From the NCBI RefSeq assembly GCF_018919265.1, contig NZ_JAHLQO010000001.1:186001-250000 (forward strand): a DNA stretch of 64,000 nt, read 5' to 3'. Both the position numbers and the translations under genes were made by a program. This DNA comes from Peptoniphilus ovalis. Its GTDB lineage: Bacteria; Bacillota; Clostridia; Tissierellales; Peptoniphilaceae. Under the pieces are notes generated by a model. That model saw only the letters and a list, made by a program, of their open reading frames with translations. It did no database searches and had not been told where the DNA came from. Shown piece by piece: positions 11,256 through 60,616 of this stretch (positions within the stretch are counted from its first letter, which is position 1; each line of letters starts with the position of its first letter).

Positions 11256-12002
11256 TTGAATATTTTAGTTACAAATGATGACGGAATTAATGCTGAGGGA
11301 ATAGAAATCCTCGCAAAAAAAATAATTGAAGCTGGACATAAAGTTACAATTTCTGCACCAAATGTTGAAAATTCTGGTAAATCTCATGCCATCACTTTTA
11401 AAAGTCCGCTTATGGTTCAAGATGTAGACATCGAAGGACTCGAAGATGTGAGAAGCCTTTGCGTTTACGGAACACCTGCAGACTGTGTGCGTGCAGCAGT
11501 TCATTTACTAGATGAAAAATTTGACTTTTGCTTTTCAGGAATCAACTCAGGATTTAACGCTGCGACAAATGTACTTTATTCAGGAACAGTTTCAGCTGCA
11601 ATAGAGGCTAATCTTTTTGACATTCCATCAATTGCAGTTTCAGCACAGTGGATTAAGGGCCATTCAAAGTACGAAGCAGCAGCACAAGTTGCAATGGATG
11701 TATTTAATAATCTTGACGACTTAAAAAGACTTCAAGTATTAAATATAAATGTGCCTTATTTAGATTACGATGAACTTAAGGGAATTAAAGTTTGTAAAGT
11801 TGGCAGAGATGTAATGAGTATTTACGATGTATCTGAAGAAAAGGAAGGATACAATATGAGACTTAGGGGTTTTCCTAAGGACAATAACGAAGAGGATTCA
11901 GACATTTATTACCTAAATAGAAATTACGCAACAGTTAGTCCCCTTTTATACGATGTAACAAATACAACTTTAATCAATGAATTAAAGGAAATGTTAAAGT
12001 AA
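11256..12002 (+). CDS. surE: 5'-nucleotidase SurE
   Basis: This 248-residue metal-dependent phosphatase dephosphorylates nucleoside monophosphates. The start MNILVTNDDGINAEG carries the metal-binding Asp-Asp pair at residues 8-9. VENSGKSHAIT near 40 and FSGINSGFNAATNVLYSGTVSAA near 95-117 are the other family blocks. Translation starts at TTG: no ATG lies upstream in frame, the family always begins at this point, and GTGAGGA is correctly spaced. It follows walJ by 21 nt. Confidence 0.95.
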   Translation: MNILVTNDDGINAEGIEILAKKIIEAGHKVTISAPNVENSGKSHAITFKSPLMVQDVDIEGLEDVRSLCVYGTPADCVRAAVHLLDEKFDFCFSGINSGFNAATNVLYSGTVSAAIEANLFDIPSIAVSAQWIKGHSKYEAAAQVAMDVFNNLDDLKRLQVLNINVPYLDYDELKGIKVCKVGRDVMSIYDVSEEKEGYNMRLRGFPKDNNEEDSDIYYLNRNYATVSPLLYDVTNTTLINELKEMLK

Positions 12003-27889: not shown

Positions 27890-28270
27890 CTAATCGCCTA
27901 AGCCAATTAAATTATATTGATTTTCTACTGCATAATCGCAGACAGAATTTAATTTATCCATGTATTTTCTAATTTTAGAAAAAGATAGATTAAATTCATT
28001 TATAATCATATTTTCTTTATTTCTATTCAACTTTAAAAAATTTAATACAGAATCTGCAAATTCAGACAAATCTTCTACTTCAAAATTATCAATTTTAGAT
28101 AGTCCATCAGGATTTAATTTATAATAAATATTATAATTTTTAAATTTATTTCTATATTTAAATGCAAAATCTTGGAAATTTTTTATTTCCACCACATAAC
28201 TTTTCTTGTTTTTAACTGTAACTACCTTATTAGCCTGTTCTACATCTATTGCTGCAACTATATAAAGCAC
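27890..28270 (-). CDS. Hypothetical protein
   Basis: 126 residues starting at GTG 28270 behind an AGGAG site with 5-nt spacing. No family recognised. The N-terminus (LYIVAAIDVEQANKVV) looks like a beta-strand start; the rest is Lys/Asn-rich and helical. It has no TM segment or signal peptide. Confidence 0.6.
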   Translation of the reverse strand: MLYIVAAIDVEQANKVVTVKNKKSYVVEIKNFQDFAFKYRNKFKNYNIYYKLNPDGLSKIDNFEVEDLSEFADSVLNFLKLNRNKENMIINEFNLSFSKIRKYMDKLNSVCDYAVENQYNLIGLGD

Positions 28271-46966: not shown

Positions 46967-49900
46967 ATTTAAACACATCACATGTTGTTGGTCAAGAACA
47001 TCAGTAGTAATTCCAGAAAGTGTCACTAGTATATTTAAATACATCTTATATTATTGGTCAAGTAGATATATTTTTAATAATGGCACTAAGGCAGAACTAT
47101 TTAAATACATCTTATGTTATTGGTCAAGTTTAATAAAACAGAAGAATCAAAAAAAGCATCACTAATTTAAATACATCTTATGTTATTGGTCAAGGCTTTA
47201 TTTTAGTGGAAATCTTAATAAGAAAAACTTATTTAAATACATCTTATGTTATTGGTCAAGAATGTAGCTTTCCTGTTTCTTTTGTCAAGTTTAACTATTT
47301 AAATACATCTTATGTTATTGGTCAAGAAAGTCTTCTTCATAATCTTTAATAGCATTTTTAAAATCTTGTTTTAATGCTTCTATGTTTTCCCCATAAATCC
47401 CAATTATAGGTTCAACTCCTAAGATTCTGCCGTGATATTCTTCATCTTCTTCAATCCATTCATACCAAGCTAAATAATCATTATATTTAATATACTTTTT
47501 CATCAAATCCTCCTTTCAATATAGCATCTCTAATGTCTTCTGCCCTACCTCTTCCCAGATTTAAATACATCTTATGTTATTGGTCAAGAGAATTAACTGA
47601 TTGGCCTAGAATATTCACAGATGGATTTAAATACATCTTATGTTATTGGTCAAGAAACACTATAAAAGAAGAAACTGGTGTGGAGATAGATTTAAATACA
47701 TCTTATGTTATTGGTCAAGTTTGTGGTTCATAATTCTCAAGAAAGCACACGTTACGATTTAAATACATCTTATGTTATTGGTCAAGTCTTAAGTTTAATG
47801 ATGATTGTCTTATGTTTACTGAATTTAAATACATCTTATGTTATTGGTCAAGTTATCAATTCTCTCTAACAGTACTGACAACCTTTTGATTTAAATACAT
47901 CTTATGTTATTGGTCAAGATGGCAAAATTGAAGGTACTGCGACTTTATTTAAGAATTTAAATACATCTTATGTTATTGGTCAAGTATATGCTTCCCATAA
48001 GGATTAGTAAAAATATAATATTTAAATACATCTTATGTTATTGGTCAAGGAACAGGAGCACAAAAGCTATTTAAAAAAATATGGCTATTTAAATACATCT
48101 TATGTTATTGGTCAAGTTTGAAGTATATTCCTAGATTTTATGATGGGCAATCATTTAAATACATCTTATGTTATTGGTCAAGTGTGAAATGAAATTTCCT
48201 ACACTTGGGTGAGGATGATTTAAATACATCTTATGTTATTGGTCAAGTAATAAAATTTTTTTTTACGAGAGAAGGTGAGAAGAATTTAAATACATCTTAT
48301 GTTATTGGTCAAGGGAGTAACGGCTGATGAAATAAGTGGTCAAGTCCTATTTAAATACATCTTATGTTATTGGTCAAGATAAAGAAAAACAAGAAAAATA
48401 TAAACATTTTACCGTATTTAAATACATCTTATGTTATTGGTCAAGGTGGAGTACTAGCTTCATATAAATAAAAATATGTCATTTAAATACATCTTATGTT
48501 ATTGGTCAAGTGTGAAATGAAATTTCCTACACTTGGGTGAGGATGATTTAAATACATCTTATGTTATTGGTCAAGTGTGAAATGAAATTTTTTTTACGAG
48601 AGAAGGTGAGAAGAATTTAAATACATCTTATGTTATTGGTCAAGAGAATTTGGTACAGATTTAAAAGATTTTGAAATGATATTTAAATACATCTTATGTT
48701 ATTGGTCAAGGTTGTCCTTATCTGTCATTTTATTTTTGCAATACCAAATTTAAATACATCTTATGTTATTGGTCAAGAGCAGGGGCAGGAGTAAAACAAA
48801 TGGAAGATAGCATATTTAAATACATCTTATGTTATTGGTCAAGGCAGTTAAGAGATAACAAACCTGATGCTATCTCCAATTTAAATACATCTTATGTTAT
48901 TGGTCAAGCCGCAAATGGCACTTGTCGGAGAAGGCGGAGACCAATTTAAATACATCTTATGTTATTGGTCAAGCCCACATTTAGGACATCTTATATTCCA
49001 TTCCTCTATTTAAATACATCTTATGTTATTGGTCAAGCAACTGCTGCAATGGAAATCTTTAACCCAAATTTATTTAAATACATCTTATGTTATTGGTCAA
49101 GAAGTGTTCATCTGTTTCTCTTTCAGCTCCACCAAAATTTAAATACATCTTATGTTATTGGTCAAGTTGGACCGACCAAATATAAAACATTATCTTCTCC
49201 AGCATTTAAATACATCTTATGTTATTGGTCAAGTTTTTATTGGATTTTTCTTACACAGACAATGACAAATTTAAATACATCTTATGTTATTGGTCAAGAC
49301 TCCTTAAATAAATCTAAAATGCTTAGAACCATAAAATTTAAATACATCTTATGTTATTGGTCAAGTGCACAACCTTCTGCAATTGTAACAAACGTCTTAT
49401 GATTTAAATACATCTTATGTTATTGGTCAAGAAATTGTGATTTCATACTTGAAAAAATAAAATCAGAATTTAAATACATCTTATGTTATTGGTCAAGATA
49501 TAGGAAAAATTCTTGATACCAACCATTATATTTATTTAAATACATCTTATGTTATTGGTCAAGTGGAAAATTATGAAGGTATAAATAGAGACTACAATAG
49601 ATTTAAATACATCTTATGTTATTGGTCAAGCAGTAAGGAGGAAATTATGAGCGTAGAATTTAATAAATTTAAATACATCTTATGTTATTGGTCAAGATTG
49701 ACAAAAAGTATGAAATTGGAGACGACCTAAGGATATTTAAATACATCTTATGTTATTGGTCAAGCGTAGTTATGGATGAGAAAACAAACATAATCTTAGA
49801 ATTTAAATACATCTTATGTTATTGGTCAAGACAACTCTTCAAGTTGCCCTTGTTGATAAGACAGCATTTAAATACATCTTATGTTATTGGTCAAGATTCT

Positions 49901-51799
49901 TACAATGCTATTTAGTGCTGGCTCTTTGATTATTTAAATACATCTTATGTTATTGGTCAAGTCTAAATTAAACAATTTAACATTTTCTTCGTTGTGATTT
50001 AAATACATCTTATGTTATTGGTCAAGGGAACTCTCTTGTTTACATAAGTTGTGAAGTTCTTTATTTAAATACATCTTATGTTATTGGTCAAGAAGCCACA
50101 AGGTAAGCCTACTCTAGTAGAAGAAAGATTTAAATACATCTTATGTTATTGGTCAAGTTTGAGAAATCAGATAAGTTTAAAAACTTCTATGAATTTAAAT
50201 ACATCTTATGTTATTGGTCAAGTAAGTGGTATCTGTGTATTTAGGATTGTTAGGTATATTTAAATACATCTTATGTTATTGGTCAAGACCCCTTCCCAGT
50301 TAATACCACGACTTAAGCATTCATTTAAATACATCTTATGTTATTGGTCAAGTTTATGATTTATTTGGTGGTGGAGGAGCTATAACGCTATTTAAATACA
50401 TCTTATGTTATTGGTCAAGTATATCAGACCAGTTTAAAGAAATGTTTGAAAGTGTATTTAAATACATCTTATGTTATTGGTCAAGAATGTATTTATACAA
50501 ATATCGCAAGACAGAGATAAATTTAAATACATCTTATGTTATTGGTCAAGTTTGTTCATAATTTAACTCCTTACCAGCTAGCTACTATTTAAATACATCT
50601 TATGTTATTGGTCAAGTTTCTTTTCTTCCTTGTTTTTCTTTTTGTTTTTCTCATTTAAATACATCTTATGTTATTGGTCAAGTATTCATAAAGTTCGTTA
50701 CAAAAAACGAAAAGGTAAATTTAAATACATCTTATGTTATTGGTCAAGTATTAACAAAAATATGACTTATATAGAAGAAACAGAATTTAAATACATCTTA
50801 TGTTATTGGTCAAGACAACAACAACTATATAGAGACGAGAAAAATTTAAAATTTAAATACATCTTATGTTATTGGTCAAGTGGATTTGGTCTAAATGGAA
50901 TCCAAAAGGTTAAAGAATTTAAATACATCTTATGTTATTGGTCAAGAAGAAACCAACACAAATAAAAAGGAGATTGAGAAAAATTTAAATACATCTTATG
51001 TTATTGGTCAAGTTGCTTTAAAACAACTTGGTGCATTCCAGACTTTAAATTTAAATACATCTTATGTTATTGGTCAAGCCTTTATAATTTCTTTTATAAA
51101 AATTACGGCATCATATTTAAATACATCTTATGTTATTGGTCAAGAAGGCATAAAACCAGACGGAGAGGTGCCAAGCTGATTTAAATACATCTTATGTTAT
51201 TGGTCAAGCTTTATTTAATAGGAATTTACTCAAAGGCACGAAGATTTAAATACATCTTATGTTATTGGTCAAGGAAACTTTATCAGGTGCGGGCATTGCT
51301 GGAGAAACATTTAAATACATCTTATGTTATTGGTCAAGAGACAAAACACTTTAGAACTTAAAAGAGCCTTTAAATTTAAATACATCTTATGTTATTGGTC
51401 AAGTCCCCTGCACAAGCACGTGCAAGGGACAAATGGAAATTTAAATACATCTTATGTTATTGGTCAAGCTTGGTAAAGTCTTATTTGCTCTTTTTACGCT
51501 TGCAAATTTAAATACATCTTATGTTATTGGTCAAGTATATCACAACTAAATTCTACTCATATATCAGCAGAATTTAAATACATCTTATGTTATTGGTCAA
51601 GACTGAATCAAATCCAATAAAGTTGTCAAAATCTCCAATTTAAATACATCTTATGTTATTGGTCAAGCTGGTCTTGGTGCTGCAATGGTTGCAATGGGTA
51701 CATTTAAATACATCTTATGTTATTGGTCAAGATGACAGATTGGAACATGAAATAGAAAGGATTGGCTTAATTTAAATACATCTTATGTTATTGGTCAAG
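46967..51799 (-). CRISPR. Type I-B CRISPR array, 71 repeats
   Basis: By hand count there are 71 copies of a 30-nt repeat. On the plus strand it begins ATTTAAATACATC and ends TTATTGGTCAAG. Spacers are 34-39 nt, apart from one 232-nt interval (47327-47558). The crRNA sense is the minus strand: the repeat then ends in ATTTAAAT, the 8-nt 5' handle of clostridial I-B crRNAs, and ACAT-AAG-ATGT makes the Cas6 hairpin. Repeats 1 (46967-46996) and 2 (47033-47062) are mutated, marking the old end. All the rest look identical. New spacers would enter at 51799 next to cas2. Several spacers translate like phage genes, such as YDLFGGGGAI at 50353-50389. Confidence 0.98.
47315..47503 (-). CDS. HicB-like antitoxin gene enclosed in the CRISPR array
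   Basis: A 62-residue ORF with GGAGG before its ATG. It begins MKKYIKYNDYLAWYEWIEED and continues EYHGRILGVEPIIGIYG, the partial RNase-H-like fold of HicB antitoxins (compare the usual HGRVLGI pattern), then ALKQDFKNAIKDYEEDF. Its last residues LDQ and the stop are encoded by CRISPR repeat 6, so the C-terminal DNA-binding part is missing. A preceding frame (47558-47487, LGRGRAEDIRDAILKGGF) is the tail of another gene cut by repeat 7. The piece therefore looks like a fragment of a two-gene unit captured between repeats. Confidence 0.7.
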   Translation of the reverse strand: MKKYIKYNDYLAWYEWIEEDEEYHGRILGVEPIIGIYGENIEALKQDFKNAIKDYEEDFLDQ

Positions 51800-51935: not shown

Positions 51936-52223
51936 CTATATTATGTCATTAATATCAATATCTATCTTGTGTGATCTTCCCATGCTTTCTTCTTCAAAGT
52001 TATTTCTGCTATACATTTTTATTATTGTTACAAAATCTTCATTTGGCTCTATTAAATTTTTTATTTCTCTTTTTAACGCCATAATTTTTGATGGTGTTAT
52101 TTCTCCTCGAAATACTGACATTTGATGATGTGTTAGATATTTTTTGCATATTTTAAATATCTTTCCAACTCTTTTTTCTCCTACGTCATAAAACAGAAAT
52201 ACATAATTATAATTTTTTTCCAT
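51936..52223 (-). CDS. cas2: CRISPR adaptation protein Cas2
   Basis: A 95-residue ferredoxin-fold protein that forms the Cas1-Cas2 spacer integrase. The first strand has FLFYDVGEKRVGKIF with the family Asp at residue 13, then YLTHHQMSVFRGEIT near 30-45. The start codon shares one base with the cas1 stop (TAATG). Confidence 0.95.
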   Translation of the reverse strand: MEKNYNYVFLFYDVGEKRVGKIFKICKKYLTHHQMSVFRGEITPSKIMALKREIKNLIEPNEDFVTIIKMYSRNNFEEESMGRSHKIDIDINDII

Positions 52224-53221
52224 TAGTATTTTCTTCCTAAATTAAAAGGTTCAAATTTTTTATCTTCTAATATATATTTGATTAGTTTGTAGCAGTCTAG
52301 TTTTATCTGAGTTCTATAACTTACATGTCTTTTTAATTTTTCGTTTCTAATTTTGCTTTCTATTCTATCTTCAAATGCTTGAATAAATATTTTCTTTCCT
52401 TCTTCGTTTAATATGCAATAGTTTAATTCTCTTACAAAATGTTTTTCTACTTTTATCTTCTTATTATTGACTAATTCAAATATAGTTTTAAACACTATGA
52501 TTGGTTTAAAAACTTCGCACATATCTAAAGATAAAGAAAATCTCGATTCGCTTGGTTCATGTAGATATGATATGCTCTGATTTAAATGTGTTTTATATAT
52601 TGCTGCTATTGTCTTTGTGTAAAGGAGCGAGTTCCCAAATGATATTAATGCATTTATTGGATTGTCAGGCGGTCTTTTAACTCTTTTATTTATTATAAAA
52701 TCTTCTTCTAAAAAATATCTAAAGTTATAATAAAGGCCTTGCCAAAGCTCTCCTTCATAGCTCAATAGTTCTTTTATATTTGTTGAGTTTTCGATTTTTA
52801 TAGAGAGTTCATTTTTTATATAGTCAAGGTATGGCTTCACTTCTTTTTTGTCATGTTTATAGTAATGATAGAGTACTTCATGGATGTTTTCTAATATTCC
52901 CCTTACTATGGCTCTTGCTATTTCCATTCTTCTATATTTATATGCATCTACTTGTGCTATCAAAAGTCTTCCACTTATATATGCTTCTCTGGGATAATAG
53001 GATCCGCTGTAGTTTCCATAGTAATTGAAAAAATGAAGCACTATTTTATGTTGTGATAAAAAGTCCAATAATTTTGTGTTAATACTTGTTTCATTTAATA
53101 GATATATTTCATTTATGTTTTCAATTGGGATATAATTATTTTTCCCATCTTTTCTAAAGCAAAGTGAATTATCTTTTCTTTTTAATTCCCCATCTGATAA
53201 AATATATTTTGTTTTACCCAT
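52223..53221 (-). CDS. cas1: CRISPR integrase Cas1, type I-B
   Basis: 332 residues. The metal-binding catalytic residues are visible as E156 (LLSYEGELWQ), H221 (SYLHEPSESR) and D233 (LSLDMCEVF). The N-terminal beta domain starts KTKYILSDGELKRKDNSLCF. Together with Cas2 and Cas4 it integrates new spacers at the leader end. The gene starts two bases after cas4. Confidence 0.96.
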   Translation of the reverse strand: MGKTKYILSDGELKRKDNSLCFRKDGKNNYIPIENINEIYLLNETSINTKLLDFLSQHKIVLHFFNYYGNYSGSYYPREAYISGRLLIAQVDAYKYRRMEIARAIVRGILENIHEVLYHYYKHDKKEVKPYLDYIKNELSIKIENSTNIKELLSYEGELWQGLYYNFRYFLEEDFIINKRVKRPPDNPINALISFGNSLLYTKTIAAIYKTHLNQSISYLHEPSESRFSLSLDMCEVFKPIIVFKTIFELVNNKKIKVEKHFVRELNYCILNEEGKKIFIQAFEDRIESKIRNEKLKRHVSYRTQIKLDCYKLIKYILEDKKFEPFNLGRKY

Positions 53222-53223
53222 GT

Positions 53224-53709
53224 CTACACCCTACAATATTCATAGTATGCACATTTAGTACATCCCTTAATCTTTTTAAATTTTGGAATTTCATCACCCT
53301 CGATTAGTTTTTCTATTTCACTTATTAATTTTTCTAACTCTTGAGTTTTCTCTTCGGTGAGTTCTAATATTTCTATTTTCTTGCCCACATTATTTTCAAC
53401 AAATTCTAGTTTTCCTCTTTTTTCAATTCCCTTACCTTTTAAAATGTATAAATAATAATATAGTTGCCATGATGCAGCTTCTTTATCTGCATCTGACTTT
53501 TTTATTTCTACTAAATAATCTTTTGTAATTTTATCGATTGCAATATTTTCTATTTTTATTTCTGCGTTTTTGCTACCCTCTTCTTTATTTTTATGGATTT
53601 CTCTTCCTATTGCCACAAGCTCGCTATTATCTTCAAAATTTAGCTTGTTTGCAAAAAGATAACATTGCCTCTTGCAATGAAAGTAATAATTTATTATTGT
53701 CCCATTCAT
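53224..53709 (-). CDS. cas4: Cas4 exonuclease
   Basis: 161 residues. The iron-sulfur cluster cysteines are in YYFHCKRQCYLF at the N-terminus and CTKCAYYEYC at the C-terminus. Nuclease residues include EIKKSDADKEAASWQLYYYL near 85-105 (the RecB-like motif). Cas4 trims prespacers and sets PAM choice. ATG 53709 is used because it directly precedes the family start. The upstream TTG at 53721 overlaps cas3. Confidence 0.93.
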   Translation of the reverse strand: MNGTIINYYFHCKRQCYLFANKLNFEDNSELVAIGREIHKNKEEGSKNAEIKIENIAIDKITKDYLVEIKKSDADKEAASWQLYYYLYILKGKGIEKRGKLEFVENNVGKKIEILELTEEKTQELEKLISEIEKLIEGDEIPKFKKIKGCTKCAYYEYCRV

Positions 53710-53717
53710 AGTTTCTC

Positions 53718-56234
53718 TCAAATAAATAAATCATCAAATGTATCATCTTTTGATAATTTAATTCTTCCATTTTTTAAGTATTTTTCGCCATCATCTAAAT
53801 AATATATATTACCTATAAAGTCATTGTAGTTTTTAATACAATCTTCAAACTTCACTTTGCTTATTTTGTACATAAAATTTGACATTATTACTTTTATTTT
53901 GGAAAGTTCTACAATTTTTCTACTATAATCCATTTTATAGTCTTGTAATAATTTTTTATAATCTTTCCAGACTTTTTCTCCTACAACTTCTTTGCCATCT
54001 AATTCAATTATTTGATTTGCAAAAATATTTACTTCTTCTATTTTATCAATTAATTTCATATGATTTGATATATCTAAAAACTTGTTTTCTGAAAGTGCTT
54101 TTTTATATTTTGAATAATTTAGGCTTTTTTGATCTTCTATAGCTTTTTCAATTTTTAAATTAAAATATTCTTCAAAATCTTTTTCTTCAAGGTTTTTTCT
54201 CCTGTTTTTATCTCTTAGTGTGAGTTCATTGTCAATATGTCCATAAATTACTGACTCATCTGCCATGTCGAAGAAATATGCTACAGAATTTGATTTTTTA
54301 GCAGATCTATTTATTCTTCCTAAAAACTGTTCTTCATTTTCAAGTTTTGATATGTCTTTATATCCTATGTCCATATCAATATCAACGCCGGCTTCTATTA
54401 CTTGTGTTGCAATTAAGATTAATTTTTCCTTAGATGTTTTTATCTCTTCCACGACGTCTTTTTTCTTTCTAGAATTATCTGCTCCTGTGAGTATAAATAC
54501 TTTATAATCCGCAAAAAACTTATCTTCACTTACCATGTCATAGAAATTTTCTGCATCGTCTTTTTTTATAAATTCTAGCAAAATCTTTTTATAATCTTTA
54601 ATATTATCTTTTAAATGGTCTAAAATATCTACATATTCTACTTTTCCTCTGTCTAAAAGTTCATAATTTAATTTGACTCTATTTTTAAATAGGTCCTCAT
54701 TAAAAATTTCTCTAGGATTATCAATTAGTTTTGCTACTTTATTTTTATTATTTTCGTCCAAAAGTTTTGACAAATCTGGAAGTGTTGCAGACATTATTAT
54801 TATTTTCATATTAAGTATTTCTGCATATTCACTCAACATTTCAATTATTTCGTTCCAAATTTTTTCTTTGTATGCTTGTATTTCATCTAGAACTATTACT
54901 GAATTTGTAAGTTGATATAGTCCAAATATGCTGGACCTTTTACTTGAAAATATTATTTCAAATAAAGCTACATTTGATGTAAGAATAAATGGAGAATGCA
55001 AAAATTGTCTATCCTGTAATACTTTTATATAGTAATTTTTCTGCTCAATAGAACCTTCTTCTTCATTTAAATTATTACCAATCTCTGTTACTGAGTTAAG
55101 AACGCTAATTTGTCCTCCAACTTCACTATCTTTATAATATTCTCTTAAAGTCTCTCTATTTTGTTCGACAAGTGTATTAAAGGGATAGGCATAAATTATT
55201 TTATTCATATTTTCATCTAGTAGTTTATAGGATAAGTTTATGGCAATATTACTTTTGCCTGAGCCCGTTGGACTTTCTAAGAAATATATATTTTTATCTT
55301 TATTTTTTTCAAAATTTTCTTCTACTTCTAAAAATATTTTAGTTCTTAAATCATTTAGTTTTTCTTTTTTCTTATAAGATTTAGTTTCTTCCTGATTTCT
55401 AATTGATTTCATAAGATTTGAGTTGTTATAGATATCAATTAAAGATTCTTTATCAATTTCTTCTTTTTGCGATTTGTAAGAGTTCATAAATTCAGTAGTT
55501 GCATAGAAGTCAGATGCTACTAATAGTGAGTACATCAGTCTTTGGTAAATAAATAAGGTTTTAGATTTTTCTTTTTTAAATTTTCCGATTTTTGAAGAAG
55601 TTAATAAGTTGTAGTTAGTTTTAAAAAAATTTTTTATTTTTCCTTCAAAACCACTTGAAAAATCTTTTGTAAAAATTCCCGTTTCAGATATTATTTTAAA
55701 GATTTCTAAATCGTTATTATTAATAGAGAAGTAATCCCAAAAACTTTTACCACTATACTCAAAATTATCTAAATCAGAATGATGTTTAGAAATTATGTAT
55801 GCATTCAAAAATAAAATGTATTGAATTTTTTGCAAGTCAGCTTTTATTAAACTCAAATTATCTAAATAATCTAAATAATAATATAGATATAAAGCTGCTG
55901 AAAGAATTGAGTGTTTACTGCTTATTCCTAAATCTATATCTTCAATTTTATTAAATAGTCTTTCTGATTGAAACTTTGAATTTATCTTGCCCCAATCATG
56001 TGCTGAAACCAAGGAGTCTGCAAGCTCTTTAAAAATTTCAAAGTATTCTGGGTTTATTTCAAGTTTTTCAAATATTCTCTTAAATACTTCATCAAGATTT
56101 TTCTCTTTTTTTAAATTTTTATAATAATCATCTACAAGTTCTATATGATTATCTAAAAGTTCCATTGTTTTATTTTTTTGATTTATGTGACCATAATATT
56201 TCTTATGGTCACATATTATTTCACTAATTTTCAT
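53718..56234 (-). CDS. cas3: Cas3 helicase-nuclease
   Basis: About 838 residues. The N-terminal HD nuclease has SAHDWGKINSKF near residue 85 and ISKHHSDLDN near 150. The SF2 helicase has Walker A LESPTGSGKSNIAI near 315, DEIQ box IVLDEIQAYKEKIW near 440, motif III MSATLP near 478 and motif VI QFLGRINRSAK near 655. It is recruited by Cascade and degrades target DNA. GAGGA precedes ATG 56234. The gene overlaps the end of cas5. Confidence 0.96.
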   Translation of the reverse strand: MKISEIICDHKKYYGHINQKNKTMELLDNHIELVDDYYKNLKKEKNLDEVFKRIFEKLEINPEYFEIFKELADSLVSAHDWGKINSKFQSERLFNKIEDIDLGISSKHSILSAALYLYYYLDYLDNLSLIKADLQKIQYILFLNAYIISKHHSDLDNFEYSGKSFWDYFSINNNDLEIFKIISETGIFTKDFSSGFEGKIKNFFKTNYNLLTSSKIGKFKKEKSKTLFIYQRLMYSLLVASDFYATTEFMNSYKSQKEEIDKESLIDIYNNSNLMKSIRNQEETKSYKKKEKLNDLRTKIFLEVEENFEKNKDKNIYFLESPTGSGKSNIAINLSYKLLDENMNKIIYAYPFNTLVEQNRETLREYYKDSEVGGQISVLNSVTEIGNNLNEEEGSIEQKNYYIKVLQDRQFLHSPFILTSNVALFEIIFSSKRSSIFGLYQLTNSVIVLDEIQAYKEKIWNEIIEMLSEYAEILNMKIIIMSATLPDLSKLLDENNKNKVAKLIDNPREIFNEDLFKNRVKLNYELLDRGKVEYVDILDHLKDNIKDYKKILLEFIKKDDAENFYDMVSEDKFFADYKVFILTGADNSRKKKDVVEEIKTSKEKLILIATQVIEAGVDIDMDIGYKDISKLENEEQFLGRINRSAKKSNSVAYFFDMADESVIYGHIDNELTLRDKNRRKNLEEKDFEEYFNLKIEKAIEDQKSLNYSKYKKALSENKFLDISNHMKLIDKIEEVNIFANQIIELDGKEVVGEKVWKDYKKLLQDYKMDYSRKIVELSKIKVIMSNFMYKISKVKFEDCIKNYNDFIGNIYYLDDGEKYLKNGRIKLSKDDTFDDLFI

Positions 56235-56967
56235 AAATTCCATCCTCATTATAGAAAATTAAATTATCCTCTTCATGAGAAAATACAATATTATTCATAT
56301 CTTCTTCAAATGTTATGTCGGCATTTGTGAAAATAAAATCTTCATATATATATCTTTCAGTTTCCTTTTCCAATTTAAAAGGTAACTTTTCTCTATATAT
56401 ATAACACATAAAAGATTCCATTTCCGAGATATTATTATTGATGAATAAAGAATTTATTCTAATTTCTCCAATACTTTGTTTATTTTTAAGTTCTACTATT
56501 TCTTGATCTTTAATATTTGCCAAATGGTCATTTGATCCTAAATAAGGTATAAATGTAGCTCTGTTATTTAATATTTTATCTGCAATTGATTCTGATATTT
56601 CGTCATCAATTATTATATAAATATCCCAAGATACATCTTCTAGCCAAACTTGTTTTACTATAAGATTTCCTCCAGCTTCATTAGATGCATGACCAGTGGA
56701 GTTATTAAATTTTTGAAGTTTTCTAGGAAAAGTTCCATCATTTGTTTTCGGCACAATTGAAATCTTAATATTTTTTAATTTTTCATAAAATTCTGGATAT
56801 TCTTTTCTATTTTTATCTGCATATCCCTTATATCCCATAATTGCTCCAATTAGTCCTAAAAGTGCTACTCGATGTATTTGACCATAGGAGTAATAAAGAT
56901 ATGTGTTTACATCTGGCATTTTAAAGAAGGCTGTTTTCCCAGATAGATTAAATTTTAAAGCCTTCAT
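56224..56967 (-). CDS. cas5: Cascade subunit Cas5, type I-B
   Basis: 247 residues of RAMP fold, beginning KALKFNLSGKTAFFKMPDVN with the Gly-rich AFFKMPDVNTYLYYSYGQIH segment typical of Cas5, then RVALLGLIGAIMGYKGY. It binds the 5' handle of the crRNA and contacts Cas8 and the first Cas7. The start shares one base with the cas7 stop. Confidence 0.93.
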   Translation of the reverse strand: MKALKFNLSGKTAFFKMPDVNTYLYYSYGQIHRVALLGLIGAIMGYKGYADKNRKEYPEFYEKLKNIKISIVPKTNDGTFPRKLQKFNNSTGHASNEAGGNLIVKQVWLEDVSWDIYIIIDDEISESIADKILNNRATFIPYLGSNDHLANIKDQEIVELKNKQSIGEIRINSLFINNNISEMESFMCYIYREKLPFKLEKETERYIYEDFIFTNADITFEEDMNNIVFSHEEDNLIFYNEDGIYEN

Positions 56968-57932
56968 TATTTTTCTCCTAGTTCTCTACCTGTGTAAATA
57001 TTAAATAATTTTGCAGATGCAGGGAAATCAACTAATTCTAGGACTGCATCATTATAATAAATTTCAATATCTATAATTTCATCTCTATTTTCTAAAATTC
57101 CACTATCTTTAAAAATTATTTTGTGCTTAGAATTATCATCTTCTCTTTTTTCGAATTTAATTAACTCTGCAAGATTTGGAAGATATAAATCTAAATCTGT
57201 TTCTACAAAAAGTGAAAATTCATTTTCTGCTCCTTTTTTGGAGTTTGTATCAAATCCTGTGGCTGATTTAATTGCTGCATCTTTAAATTCTTTAAAGTCA
57301 TCTTCAGTGTAGCCCTCAGTTACGCCAAGTTCTTCATATCCATTGTATGCAAGAGGATTAACTACAAAAGAATAAAAATAATGTGCCTCTTCAGAAACTA
57401 TTTTAGTTCCAAGTGTTGAACTTTTAGCATCTTCTTCAGTTTTTGATTTTTCCTTTGCCTTAGGATCTCTAAAAGGAGAAAGAATTGGTTGATCATTTGC
57501 CACAGGGTCTTCAAACTTATTCATTCCTTGTGAGAATTGAACCGCTCCAGTTATTGCAATATTATTTCCAGCTTCTGCAAAAGTTGCTCCAAAGTTTTTG
57601 ACATCAATTGCTGAGAATAAATTTTTAAGTACTTTTTCTGATTCGCCAGTCTTTTCATTTTTAAGCTCAGTGTCAAAGATTTGTTCATATCTTTCCTTTA
57701 ATGTTCTTGGAATTAAATATCCATTATCAGATATGATATAGGATTTTAAATATAAAACTTTTTTGTCTTCTTCATCCCATTTCTTTTTCATTGTGTATTT
57801 TAAAGCTTTGTCAGATCCAAATATTTCTCCATTTGACAATGATTTTGGATTTCCTGAAAAGTCAGCGTTCCAATTTGCCATAATTGAAGAAATTCCTATA
57901 ACTCCATATACTCTTTTATCTAGTTTATTCAT
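56967..57932 (-). CDS. cas7: Cascade backbone Cas7 (Csh2 type)
   Basis: 321 residues. The Csh2 start RVYGVIGISSIMANWNADFS and the loop NGEIFGSDKALKYTMKKKW near residues 38-55 are diagnostic, as is FSQGMNKFEDPVANDQPILS near 133. Six or so copies coat the crRNA; each flips out every sixth spacer base, which matters for the regulator described at 60505-60589. It overlaps cas8b by 8 nt. Confidence 0.95.
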   Translation of the reverse strand: MNKLDKRVYGVIGISSIMANWNADFSGNPKSLSNGEIFGSDKALKYTMKKKWDEEDKKVLYLKSYIISDNGYLIPRTLKERYEQIFDTELKNEKTGESEKVLKNLFSAIDVKNFGATFAEAGNNIAITGAVQFSQGMNKFEDPVANDQPILSPFRDPKAKEKSKTEEDAKSSTLGTKIVSEEAHYFYSFVVNPLAYNGYEELGVTEGYTEDDFKEFKDAAIKSATGFDTNSKKGAENEFSLFVETDLDLYLPNLAELIKFEKREDDNSKHKIIFKDSGILENRDEIIDIEIYYNDAVLELVDFPASAKLFNIYTGRELGEK

Positions 57933-59721
57933 TTTCTACTCCTTTAATTTCTTCCTTTTTCTTATTGTAGATATAACATTCATCTAAAAATCCTGCGATA
58001 ATATATTTATCATCTATTTTATTTTTTTGAAATTCATAAAGTATTATATTAGTTATTAATTGATTTAAGTTAGAAGCTCTATAAGCTTTTATAATATGAG
58101 CATATCTCTCAACAATCTTTTCAAAATTTCTCATAAGTATTTTAGGGTTATTTCTTCCTAAATAATTTTTTACAAAGCTTAGATTCTTATCCTTCATATT
58201 ATTTTGGTCTAGTATATATCTGAGAACTTGTCCAATTCCGAAAAGACATTCTTCATCACTTTCAAAATTATATTTTTCTTCGCTTCTAATTTTTTCTCTC
58301 ATGTTGTCTTGAAAATTCACAAACTCACCTTCACTTTCCTTGTTTAAAAATTCTTTAATAGATAAATAATAATTAAATTGACCAACTGCTTTATTGAAAT
58401 ATTCTTTTGACAGTGAATATTTAATAGAATCAAGTATTAAATTTTCCATTAGGCTGTTGATATTCACATCGTCTTCGTATAGAAAATATCTCGATAAATT
58501 ATCCCCATATTTAATTAAAATATTTTTTAAATCTCTGTCTCTAATGTTGAGGTCTTCAAGATTATCTCTATTTTTTAAATAATAATTATAAAAATAAACC
58601 CAATTAATATTTTTTAAGACTTCAAATCTATCATTAAGCTTTAAATATTTTGATTTTTGTTTAGTAATTTCTTCTTCACTTAAATCTCTTGATAGATTTT
58701 CTCTGATAAATTCCTTAAACTCTATATCAATAGATGGAACTGGTTTTGTATAATGTTTAAAATTTAGTATTGCAGCTTCATTTTTCTCAGGATATAGAAA
58801 AAGTTCATATCCAATAAATACATACTTTATATCTTTAAAACTAGTATAAATTTCTTTATTTTCAGTATTAAAATAAACTCTAGAAATTCCCTTTCTGGCT
58901 AAAGAATTCAAATAATCAAAGAAATCTTTTTGCTTTAAGGCCTCTTCACTAGTTATCATATATGGTTCTTTTACTTTCCTTACAAGATTAGCAAGATATG
59001 GTTTTTTATCATTTAGTCCCATATTGTCATTAGAAAGCCCATAACTTGTATTTCCAATTTTAATATTGTACTTATTTTTATTAAAACTATTGACCATTAC
59101 ATATCTATCTTGCTCTCTCTTATAATTTTTTATGTTTTTATCAAAAATTTCTTTTCGATTTTCACCATCATAAATAAAGAAAAACTTATAATAAACTTTG
59201 GAGTTTAAATCATATTCAAAATTATCTAGATTTTTAAGTAACCAATTTTCAATTTTCTCTAATTCTTCAATATTAACTTCTCCAAGTTTTTCCTCAACTT
59301 CTTTGTAAAGATTTTTTGATTCCTTGTCCTTATATTTTTTATATGGATCTTTTAAGATTTCAAAATATCTCTTAATTGCATCTCTGTTCATTTTTTCTGG
59401 ATAATTGCTTTCCTTGAAAAATACAGAGTAGTAGTTGGAGCTTTGTATTATTTTCTTGTTATCCAATGGCTTGTTCATATCAAGCAAGTTAGAATAGTAA
59501 TCTAAGTTTTTAATTAGATTATAATTTAGAGATTCTTCTCCTTTTAACTTATTATTTTTCTTGTCATATTCTAAAACTAGTGGTTCATCGCAAGTCCATT
59601 CTGCTTCATTCATTCTAACTAAGACATACTTTCCATCTTTTGGGACATAATTTTTAATTACAATATTTTGCCCATCTTCAATTTTATTTTCTTCAAAAAT
59701 TTCAATACATTCTTTTAGCAT
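57925..59721 (-). CDS. cas8b: Cascade large subunit Cas8b (Csh1 type)
   Basis: 598 residues with no simple motif, as usual for Cas8. The position between cas6 and csh2, the length, and helical blocks such as KAVGQFNYYLSIKEFLN and LFGIGQVLRYILDQNN near 470-530 support Csh1. It reads the PAM and recruits Cas3. The promoter-distal end overlaps cas7. Confidence 0.85.
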   Translation of the reverse strand: MLKECIEIFEENKIEDGQNIVIKNYVPKDGKYVLVRMNEAEWTCDEPLVLEYDKKNNKLKGEESLNYNLIKNLDYYSNLLDMNKPLDNKKIIQSSNYYSVFFKESNYPEKMNRDAIKRYFEILKDPYKKYKDKESKNLYKEVEEKLGEVNIEELEKIENWLLKNLDNFEYDLNSKVYYKFFFIYDGENRKEIFDKNIKNYKREQDRYVMVNSFNKNKYNIKIGNTSYGLSNDNMGLNDKKPYLANLVRKVKEPYMITSEEALKQKDFFDYLNSLARKGISRVYFNTENKEIYTSFKDIKYVFIGYELFLYPEKNEAAILNFKHYTKPVPSIDIEFKEFIRENLSRDLSEEEITKQKSKYLKLNDRFEVLKNINWVYFYNYYLKNRDNLEDLNIRDRDLKNILIKYGDNLSRYFLYEDDVNINSLMENLILDSIKYSLSKEYFNKAVGQFNYYLSIKEFLNKESEGEFVNFQDNMREKIRSEEKYNFESDEECLFGIGQVLRYILDQNNMKDKNLSFVKNYLGRNNPKILMRNFEKIVERYAHIIKAYRASNLNQLITNIILYEFQKNKIDDKYIIAGFLDECYIYNKKKEEIKGVENE

Positions 59722-59732
59722 CTATTCACCTC

Positions 59733-60419
59733 CTAACCTAAATATTTGTATCCACAGAATCCACTTCCGTAAGATATATTTTCACCTAAGCCAACGCCTA
59801 GAATTAAGTATGCAATATCTTGTGATAAATTATCTGGATTAATTTGAAGTTCTAATTTATCCCCTAAAAGAGTAATTCCTTTGCAATAAACTTTAACTGG
59901 TTTATTATTTAAGATTTTTAAATTACTATAAAAATCTTCTTCAGCAATTTCTTCTTCGACAAAATATTTATATTTTTTAAAAATATTGTCCTTGATTCTC
60001 TTTTCAAATTCATTCAAGCTAATTTCGTTGTTCCAATAACCATTAGCAGTTTTAATTACAACGGGACTTAAAGAGAATATCTTGTCTATTGAATGTTTTG
60101 GAATTATTCTTGCTCTTAATGTTAAATTTTTGAAATAGTCATTGCGAGCGTTTTCAAAATTCTTCAAAAAATAATTACACAAGTCCTGGTCTATTGTTCT
60201 TATTCTGAAATTATAGATATTTTCTTTTTCATATCCATTGTTAATAGGAAATAAATTATCAAAACAATAAGGTTTATACTTTTTAGACTTATGCAACTCT
60301 AAATATTTTTCATCTTTTGCAAGATATTCTGTTATGAACTTTGATAGTTGATATTGAGATTCTTCTACTGTTAGATTCCTTAGCAAATAAGTTTTTATTT
60401 GCAATTCATATATTTTCAT
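59733..60419 (-). CDS. cas6: CRISPR RNA endonuclease Cas6
   Basis: 228 residues. Two RAMP halves end in the Gly-rich signature LILGVGLGENISYGSGFCGY (last 22 residues), and the centre has LRARIIPKHSIDKIFSLSP. It cuts each repeat 8 nt from its 3' end and stays on the hairpin. First gene of the operon, with GGAGGTG 5 nt before the ATG. Its leader contains the protospacer-like site at 60436-60450. Confidence 0.94.
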   Translation of the reverse strand: MKIYELQIKTYLLRNLTVEESQYQLSKFITEYLAKDEKYLELHKSKKYKPYCFDNLFPINNGYEKENIYNFRIRTIDQDLCNYFLKNFENARNDYFKNLTLRARIIPKHSIDKIFSLSPVVIKTANGYWNNEISLNEFEKRIKDNIFKKYKYFVEEEIAEEDFYSNLKILNNKPVKVYCKGITLLGDKLELQINPDNLSQDIAYLILGVGLGENISYGSGFCGYKYLG

Positions 60420-60435
60420 TTTTCACCTCCAATTT

Positions 60436-60453
60436 ATTAATACTTTAGACTGA
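60436..60453 (-). promoter_or_regulatory. Protospacer-like site for the degenerate spacer, at the cas operon start
   Basis: On the minus strand GTCTAAAGTATTAAT (60450 to 60436) matches the first 15 nt of the degenerate spacer, GTCTATAGTATTAAT, except at position 6, which type I effectors do not read. It is preceded by TCA, a PAM used by some clostridial I-B systems. The site is about 7 nt after the predicted start of transcription and runs into the cas6 ribosome site. Confidence 0.8.
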
Positions 60454-60463
60454 ATCTGATTTG

Positions 60464-60492
60464 ATGTTAATATAAAAGGTTTAATTTGTCAA
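60464..60492 (-). promoter_or_regulatory. cas operon promoter
   Basis: On the minus strand TTGACA (60487-60492) and TAACAT (60464-60469) are 17 nt apart. The -35 lies at the edge of the loop of the 14-bp inverted repeat at 60474-60511, and the spacer lies in its downstream arm. Confidence 0.8.
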
Positions 60493-60511
60493 TAGATAAA
60501 TTAAACCTTTT
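60474..60511. repeat. 14-bp perfect inverted repeat over the cas promoter
   Basis: AAAAGGTTTAATTT (60474-60487) and AAATTAAACCTTTT (60498-60511) flank a 10-nt loop. It lies between the degenerate CRISPR unit and the cas promoter. In RNA it would give a hairpin followed by TATATT, so it may end the small regulator RNA; as DNA it could be an operator. Confidence 0.75.
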
Positions 60512-60589
60512 TACATCTTATGTTGTTGGTCAAAAAATATTTACATTAATACTATAGACATTTAAATACATCCCATGTTATTTTTTAAT
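60505..60589 (-). ncRNA. Degenerate mini-CRISPR upstream of cas6 (CreR-like regulator RNA)
   Basis: Two imperfect repeats surround a 25-nt spacer. In crRNA sense the first (60589-60560) keeps ACAT-GGG-ATGT and the intact ATTTAAAT handle. The second (60534-60505) keeps TTGACCAACAACATAAG and the Cas6 hairpin but has lost the handle. The spacer (60559-60535) starts GTCTATAGTATTAAT and matches the cas leader at 60450-60436. Cas6 could process it into a short crRNA-like guide. Partial pairing fits binding without Cas3 cleavage, as described for CreR and CreA regulators of other CRISPR loci (established knowledge). Function here is inferred. Confidence 0.8.
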
Positions 60590-60616
60590 AATATCATTTA
60601 TTATTTCAATATTCAA
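60588..60616 (-). promoter_or_regulatory. Candidate promoter of the mini-CRISPR RNA
   Basis: On the minus strand TTGAAT (60611-60616) and TATTAT (60588-60593) are 17 nt apart. Transcription would begin inside the first degenerate repeat near 60581, leaving the Cas6 hairpin and handle intact. Confidence 0.6.

What the first reader, a model, noticed from the sequence alone, without database searches (positions are those of the whole stretch)
60426..60616. CreR-like mini-CRISPR: a degenerate spacer upstream of cas6 targets the cas operon's own start
Two decayed repeats (60560-60589, 60505-60534) that still hold the Cas6 hairpin, and in one case the full 8-nt handle, flank a 25-nt spacer. Its first 15 nt match the cas6 leader at 60450-60436 in 14 positions. 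The single mismatch is at position 6, exactly the base that type I Cascade flips out, and pairing ends after position 15, so Cascade should bind without Cas3 attack. The flank is TCA, a plausible I-B PAM. The target lies about 7 nt after the predicted start and reaches the ribosome site. The unit has its own -35/-10 with 17-nt spacing. Such crRNA-resembling regulators are known from some other CRISPR loci; I know of none reported from this clade.
Basis: partly seen in the sequence, partly recalled or inferred. Interest (0 to 1): 0.95.

Follow-up and report, generated by a model that had tools for sequence, protein, structure and literature searches.

The report
RNA thermostat for CRISPR genes
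Just in front of its CRISPR defence genes this bacterium carries a tiny worn-down CRISPR unit whose guide matches the start of those same genes, so the defence complex probably turns its own production down; the kind is known, and the same arrangement recurs in many related bacteria.

Summary
Upstream of cas6 (minus strand) lies a mini-CRISPR: a degenerate repeat with intact 8-nt handle (60560-60589), a 25-nt spacer (60535-60559), and a second repeat ending after the hairpin (60513-60534). The first 15 spacer bases match the cas6 leader (60436-60450, 5' flank TCA) except at position 6; that target is unique in the genome. Decisive evidence is comparative. In 29 of 89 clostridial I-B cas6 upstream regions, a handle-led spacer matches a TCA-flanked downstream target at 13 or more of 15 bases, against 0 in 1,780 shuffled regions and 0 sense-strand cases in 942 control windows. 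Spacer and target change together between lineages. In 24 non-redundant loci, 23 of 27 mismatches fall at positions 6 or 12, the bases type I Cascade leaves unpaired. I read it as a CreR-type RNA leading Cascade to repress its own operon without DNA attack. CreR and mini-arrays matching cas promoters are already known (Liu 2023, Shmakov 2023; neither readable here): a new member of a known kind. The claimed dedicated promoter is no better than chance. Transcription, processing and repression are untested.

The parts
60560..60589 (-). psiR1: degenerate repeat with intact hairpin half and 8-nt handle ATTTAAAT
   Evidence: 18/20 to the array repeat's last 20 nt; Rfam CRISPR-DR3 above gathering score; coordinates
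60535..60559 (-). 25-nt spacer (psiS); first 15 nt match the cas leader at 14 of 15, mismatch at position 6
60513..60534 (-). psiR2: keeps repeat bases up to the presumed Cas6 cut after ATGT; the following 8 nt (60505-60512) no longer resemble the handle
   Evidence: 19/20 over repeat bases 3-22, handle score 3 of 8
60451..60453 (-). TCA, 5' flank of the target (PAM)
   Evidence: the same flank in the 29 loci, which were counted for having it (other flanks: 16 pairs)
60436..60450 (-). target (protospacer seed) GTCTAAAGTATTAAT in the cas6 leader
   Evidence: unique in the genome; +7 from predicted start
60464..60492 (-). cas promoter-like site TTGACA-17-TAACAT
   Evidence: 10/12
60588..60616 (-). 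possible creR promoter TTGAAT-17-TATTAT; not better than chance
   Evidence: 9/12; 10 of 40 shuffles as good
60471..60511 (-). strong AT-rich stem-loop between psiR2 and the cas -10; it overlaps the -35. Possible end of the creR transcript or an operator
   Evidence: -14.7 kcal/mol, z -6.4, 0 of 200 shuffles
59733..60419 (-). cas6
   Evidence: TIGR01877 82.3 bits, above cut-off 58.65
57925..59721 (-). large subunit, cas8b by position only (no NCBIfam hit)
   Evidence: inference from gene order
56967..57932 (-). cas7 (hits below curated cut-offs)
56224..56967 (-). cas5b
   Evidence: TIGR02592 168.5 bits
53718..56249 (-). cas3
   Evidence: TIGR01587 135 bits
51936..53721 (-). cas4 (53224-53721), cas1b (52223-53221), cas2 (51936-52223)
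46967..51799 (-). canonical CRISPR array, 71 repeats, spacers 34-39 nt plus one 232-nt insert

Best explanation
The unit is a CreR-type cas-regulating RNA gene. A transcript through psiR1-spacer-psiR2 is cut by Cas6 after each ATGT, giving a short guide with the handle ATTTAAAT and a 25-nt spacer (inferred). Cascade carrying it reads TCA and pairs with positions 1-5 and 7-15 of the cas6 leader at about +7 from the predicted start, blocking the operon's own transcription (inferred). Pairing stops after position 15, so Cas3 cutting should not be triggered (inferred from published work on other I-B systems). When crRNAs or anti-CRISPR proteins take Cascade away, repression eases, so the loop should hold Cascade at a set level (inferred from reviews of CreR). 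What is shown is the anatomy, the unique TCA-flanked target, coordinated change of spacer and target across lineages, and mismatches concentrated at the 6th-base positions.
For: Anatomy in the window. Target unique in the genome. 29 of 89 cas6 upstream regions hold a handle-led spacer matching a TCA-flanked target downstream at 13 or more of 15; 0 such TCA cases in 1,780 shuffled regions and 0 sense-strand TCA cases in 942 control windows of the same loci. 23 of 27 mismatches at positions 6/12 in 24 non-redundant loci, p 8e-17, chosen without a position rule. Spacers of other loci reach the own-locus match length in 0 of 43 for the window. Between the two Anaerococcus seed types, spacer and target changed together at bases 1 and 2, while the target alone changed at base 12 (read from the rows L024-L026, L029). 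psiR2 found in 25 of 29, with its handle gone in 24 of 25, as expected if only Cas6 cutting is selected. Targets cluster at predicted promoter edges: 15 of 17 against 4 of 23 other TCA sites (windows chosen). The spacer has the same sense as the mRNA, so it cannot act as an antisense RNA on it. Papers: TTTCA is a working I-B PAM in C. pasteurianum and TCA recurs in predictions for other clostridia (PMC4860712, passages). In a Parageobacillus I-B system crRNAs of 26 nt or less repress and 27 nt cuts (PMC10551041, passages). The archaeal relative CreA pairs at 1-5 and 7-11, and bases 6 and 12 are noted as not taking part in pairing (PMC8501985, passages).
Against: No transcript or expression data. 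The creR promoter is not distinguishable from chance. The Cas6 hairpin is not the predicted fold of psiR1, or of the array repeat. Two of the eight family genomes that hold this cas6 (L027 A. obesiensis, L028 A. hydrogenalis) have decayed repeats and no match. 60 of 89 loci gave no match of this form, and of 44 loci picked for a repeat pair 25 had no long match. No array spacer gave a convincing protospacer, so TCA was not verified as this system's own PAM.
Confidence: 0.87

Rival explanations
1. A remnant CRISPR array with one accidental self-matching spacer and no present function.
For: The repeats are degenerate and the repeat-rich array lies at the other end of the operon. Two Anaerococcus relatives show decay without a match.
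Against: Loci with different spacers keep them matched to their own leaders or promoters, with mismatches at positions 6 and 12. Thirteen loci that I picked by eye as ordinary array pieces (spacing 32-37 nt, repeats near intact) gave L* at most 8; four loci with spacers about as long (L032, L044, L061, L110) did match.
Confidence: 0.04
2. The element was a working CreR in the lineage but is silent or only marginally active in this genome.
For: No creR promoter better than chance. The first 10 bases of psiR1 have diverged from the repeat.
Against: In the window the seed, PAM, handle and psiR2 hairpin half are all kept, and read-through from upstream genes could also supply the RNA. Anaerococcus units with a worse psiR1 keep the match.
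Confidence: 0.07
3. A CreA-type antitoxin whose true client is a toxin RNA rather than the cas operon.
For: Same repeat-spacer-repeat anatomy and seed rule as CreA, and one haloarchaeal creTA lies immediately upstream of a cas operon (PMC8501985, passages). In other loci of the survey the target lies 100-360 nt from cas6, which leaves room for a small RNA.
Against: In the window cas6 starts 17 nt after the last matched base (60436 to 60419), and the predicted leader is only about 37 nt, so there is hardly room for a toxin RNA. No ORF of 80 aa or more lies in the gap.
Confidence: 0.02

Closest known systems
CreR, cas-regulating RNAs (Liu et al. 2023, Cell Host Microbe 10.1016/j.chom.2023.08.005; not held; known from recall, its title in a reference list and reviews PMC12737573 and PMC12948488, passages)
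   Same: Mini-CRISPR RNA (mini-CRISPR named in PMC12948488) that leads Cascade to the cas promoter
   Different: Host lineage; bacterial I-B of the Anaerococcus/Peptoniphilus family with 15-nt pairing and TCA flank. Which clostridia that paper covers could not be checked
crRNA-like mini-arrays partially complementary to cas promoters (Shmakov et al. 2023, NAR 10.1093/nar/gkad495; not held, abstract recalled; title in reference lists)
   Same: Two repeat-like sequences around a spacer partly matching a cas promoter (recalled); phage mini-arrays also credited to it in PMC13326750 (passage)
   Different: Here the leader is that of cas6; overlap with their list of loci unknown
CreA of CreTA (PMC8501985, PMC9458426; passages)
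   Same: psiR1-psiS-psiR2, degenerate repeats; PAM and seed pairing with base 6 free (PMC8501985)
   Different: CreA represses a toxin RNA; here the target is the cas operon's own leader
Long-form tracrRNA of type II (Workman 2021, recalled; title seen in a reference list)
   Same: Autoregulation of cas genes by a natural guide
   Different: Cas9 and tracrRNA, unrelated parts

Membership tests
CreR | Two CRISPR-repeat analogues flanking a spacer analogue, outside the array, at the cas locus | tested here: met
CreR | Limited, seed-type complementarity to the cas promoter or leader next to a PAM | tested here: met
   comparative. That TCA is this system's PAM is inferred
CreR | Repeats that Cas6 can process | tested here: inconclusive
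   Hairpin half and handle conserved in sequence, but the hairpin is not the predicted fold, nor for the normal repeat
CreR | Transcribed and processed to a guide RNA | not testable with these tools
   No expression data; promoter scan not better than chance
CreR | Cascade-dependent repression of cas genes, relieved by crRNA competition or Acr | not testable with these tools
   Needs reporter and knock-outs
CreTA (CreA) | A toxin gene under the targeted promoter | tested here: not met
   cas6 starts 17 nt after the last matched base; no ORF of 80 aa or more between; a very small toxin RNA cannot be excluded by sequence alone
Racr / solitary repeat unit | A single CRISPR repeat in a viral genome | tested here: not met
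   Two repeats, next to cas6; definition from PMC10651486 passages

The most novel reading that the evidence does not exclude
In clostridial I-B systems with this repeat type, RNA-guided autorepression would be a common mode of cas control with strict rules that I have not seen stated. The flank would be TCA and the target almost always sense and downstream. Cascade would dock at one of two positions, either about +7 as a roadblock (as here) or about -56 to -68 to cover the -35. Spacer and target would co-evolve while bases 6 and 12 drift freely. Position and pairing length would set the level of Cascade in each species.
Probability: 0.4. Interest if true: 0.55.

Novelty: new member of a known kind. 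Interest (0 to 1): 0.45.

Why it matters
It predicts, base by base, a feedback circuit that sets the dose of CRISPR defence in a group of anaerobes, several of them human-associated (recalled). The natural variation across 24 non-redundant loci acts as an evolutionary mutagenesis of Cascade binding: bases 6 and 12 are free and the rest of the first 13 almost fixed. If confirmed, it suggests how these cells avoid overproducing Cascade and how they could respond to anti-CRISPRs, and it warns that genome tools built on clostridial I-B systems may work inside an existing feedback loop.

Tried and rejected
PAM from array spacers: the array was compared with phages and plasmids, and spacers of at least 25 nt with a 5.7-kb stretch of the best phage hit and with the rest of the window. 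No convincing protospacer: the best full-length match was 26 of 36, no better than reversed spacers. The phage hit was to the repeat, not to spacers. The three plasmid hits were not opened and may be other arrays' repeats.

Own promoter of creR: 24 non-redundant loci scored 8.17 on average against 7.64 in shuffles, which I take as no support.

Antisense or upstream targets: 2 antisense and 2 upstream TCA matches among 89 regions (L042, L102, L068, L076), against 29 sense downstream. Kept as possible odd cases and not counted. With other flanks the 89 regions held 16 more sense downstream pairs of 13 or more of 15 (45 in all); some are repeat against repeat.

Phage-borne mini-arrays as mimics of CreR: the spacers of Dulem virus 30 and of five of eight IMG/VR loci gave no TCA-flanked match of 13 of 15 to the cas6 leaders held; left as a lead. 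One search listed 47 phage records with some similarity to the Dulem unit; only Dulem was opened.

A second psi-repeat on contig C3 (2 mismatches): I saw no second repeat after it in the printed stretch; read as chance.

Cas6 as query in genome contigs found nothing; Cas7 worked (best 80 of 179 relatives kept). Near-duplicate loci L025, L029, L034, L065, L084 were dropped before the mismatch count. Of 97 sequences given, cas6 was not found in 5 (L049, L064, L090, L098, L118), and L052, L119 and L082 were dropped for lack of upstream sequence, leaving 89. L027 and L028 were added to the 44 by hand.

Full report
What is there. On the minus strand upstream of cas6 the order is psiR1 (60560-60589), a 25-nt spacer (60535-60559), psiR2 (60513-60534, without the handle), a strong AT-rich stem-loop (60471-60511) that overlaps the -35, the cas promoter-like site (60464-60492), the target and the cas6 start at 60419. 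The operon reads cas6, a large subunit, cas7, cas5b, cas3, cas4, cas1b, cas2 (the large subunit is named by position, cas7 from hits below cut-off), followed by a 71-repeat array with spacers of 34-39 nt and one insert of 232 nt. It shares its family with Anaerococcus and Peptoniphilus sp. BV3C26 (the named loci share contig lengths with the G handles).

Is it chance? No. The pair score of psiR1 and psiR2 is reached by 0 of 100 shuffles. Rfam's CRISPR-DR3 model finds psiR1 above its curated score. Outside the array, psiR1 is the only genomic site with at most 1 mismatch to the hairpin+handle pattern; one more site has 2. The target with its TCA flank occurs once in 2.1 Mb, the only other site found having 2 mismatches.

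Relatives. Cas6 of this type is in 8 of 130 genomes of the family including this one. It was not found in the 13 other genomes searched of the genus, and neither was the unit; so it appears to have come with the cas locus. Of the 8, six have a match between spacer and cas6 leader and two (L027, L028) show decay. The six carry four different seeds, each matching its own leader. The two Anaerococcus seed types differ at bases 1 and 2 in both spacer and target; the target alone also differs at base 12, which needs no pairing. In all six I count by eye 13 bases between the -10 and the first target base (sequences).

Wider survey. The best 80 of 179 Cas7 relatives in named genomes and 16 further loci from the order were added. 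After losses, 89 cas6 upstream regions were examined. A first scan took 44 loci with a repeat pair (two added by hand). 19 of them had a match of 14 or more bases with mismatches allowed at every sixth position, all 19 on the sense strand with TCA; 25 had none. A second search had no rule on mismatch position. It asked for a handle-like word, 15 bases of spacer, and a downstream target with 13 or more of 15 identical. With TCA as flank it found 29 pairs in 29 loci, and with other flanks 16 pairs. In 1,780 shuffled regions there were none with TCA and 120 with other flanks. In 942 windows of 550 bases from the same loci there were 0 sense TCA cases and 1 antisense; the 89 upstream regions also held 2 antisense and 2 upstream TCA cases. 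Positive loci include Anaerococcus, Peptoniphilus, Clostridium, Eubacterium multiforme, Mediterraneibacter, Muricomes and unnamed members of the order (titles). Thirteen loci that I picked by eye as ordinary array pieces (spacing 32-37 nt) gave no match for that spacer (L* at most 8); four of them (L034, L058, L107, L114) have a separate matching unit. Length alone does not separate the two: L032, L044, L061 and L110 have spacers of 32-35 nt and do match.

The Cascade signature. In 24 non-redundant loci there are 27 mismatches in positions 1-15: 12 at position 6, 11 at position 12, two at position 3, one each at 14 and 15, and none elsewhere (p 8e-17 for 23 of 27 at 6/12, treating mismatches as independent). 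From 16 to 25, 8 to 19 of the 24 mismatch at each position. Type I Cascade leaves every sixth base unpaired (established knowledge). In CreA the authors describe pairing at 1-5 and 7-11 and say bases 6 and 12 do not take part in pairing (PMC8501985, passages). I know of no other process that would leave this pattern.

Why repression rather than attack. The spacer is 25 nt and only the first 15 pair. In a Parageobacillus I-B system guides with 26 or fewer complementary bases repress and 27 cut, with Cas3 present (PMC10551041, passages). In the survey spacers run from 20 to 38 nt in the 25 loci with a recognisable psiR2. psiR2 keeps the repeat up to the presumed cut and has lost the handle in 24 of 25, as expected if it serves only to be cut by Cas6. 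TCA is among the functional or predicted PAMs of several clostridial I-B systems (PMC4860712, passages).

Where Cascade would sit. With simple consensus promoters, 15 of 17 non-redundant loci with a promoter nearby have the target at +5 to +10 or at -55 to -69 from the predicted start, against 4 of 23 other TCA sites in the same regions. The two windows were chosen, so the p value of 9e-6 is optimistic; 7 of 24 loci had no clear promoter. The window belongs to the first group (+7).

Against. No RNA evidence exists here. The creR promoter is not better than chance. The hairpin is too weak for ViennaRNA, as it is for the ordinary repeat. 60 of 89 loci gave no match of this form, and two close relatives lost it. 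The PAM of this very system was not established.

What is known. CreR is described in reviews as a crRNA-like RNA, in type I and V-A systems, that represses cas genes and senses crRNA and Acr (PMC12737573 and PMC12948488, passages). The primary papers, Liu 2023 and Shmakov 2023, are not held. From recall, the first names types I-B, I-E and V-A, and the second reports mini-arrays matching cas promoters, mostly in type I, and in phages. My searches (only named Clostridium) listed no paper on clostridial CreR, which says little since those papers are outside the library. I therefore file it as a new member of a known kind. It meets the two sequence criteria for CreR; processing is inconclusive and regulation untestable here. 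It fails the CreTA and Racr criteria.

Noticed in passing
47327-47558 (minus strand), inside the array: One 'spacer' is 232 nt long between two perfect repeats. It carries the start of a small ORF that I read as HicB-like (PF21748 UPF0150 E 0.004, below its cut-off) and is 82% identical to a stretch in a same-genus genome (G010:C84:1220-1448). It looks like an oversized acquisition.
   Followed up: partly
48183-48217 and 48511-48545: The same 35-nt spacer occurs twice in the array, which suggests a recombination or duplication within it.
   Followed up: no
60471-60511: 14-bp AT-rich stem (z -6.4) overlapping the cas -35; I did not see it by eye in the relatives' upstream sequences. It could end the creR transcript or be an operator.
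   Followed up: partly
L124 28473-28545 and about 27899-27990 (phage PP511706.1, Dulem virus 30): A phage from lemur faeces carries two units with this I-B repeat: hairpin half and handle (one diverged), a short spacer, then a truncated or decayed second repeat. The spacers matched no cas6 leader held with TCA.
   Followed up: partly
L135 (IMGVR_UViG_3300030055_000033), repeat at 11543-11562 on the minus strand: A viral contig with a two-repeat mini-array of the same repeat type and a spacer of about 25 nt; no TCA-flanked cas target found.
   Followed up: partly
L042: A repeat upstream of cas6 precedes a spacer matching an antisense TCA-flanked target at 14 of 15, mismatch at 12: possibly a unit of opposite orientation.
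   Followed up: no
L076: Target (TCA, L* 15) lies upstream of the unit itself, next to a TTGACT, so the RNA may repress its own promoter or one shared with cas.
   Followed up: no
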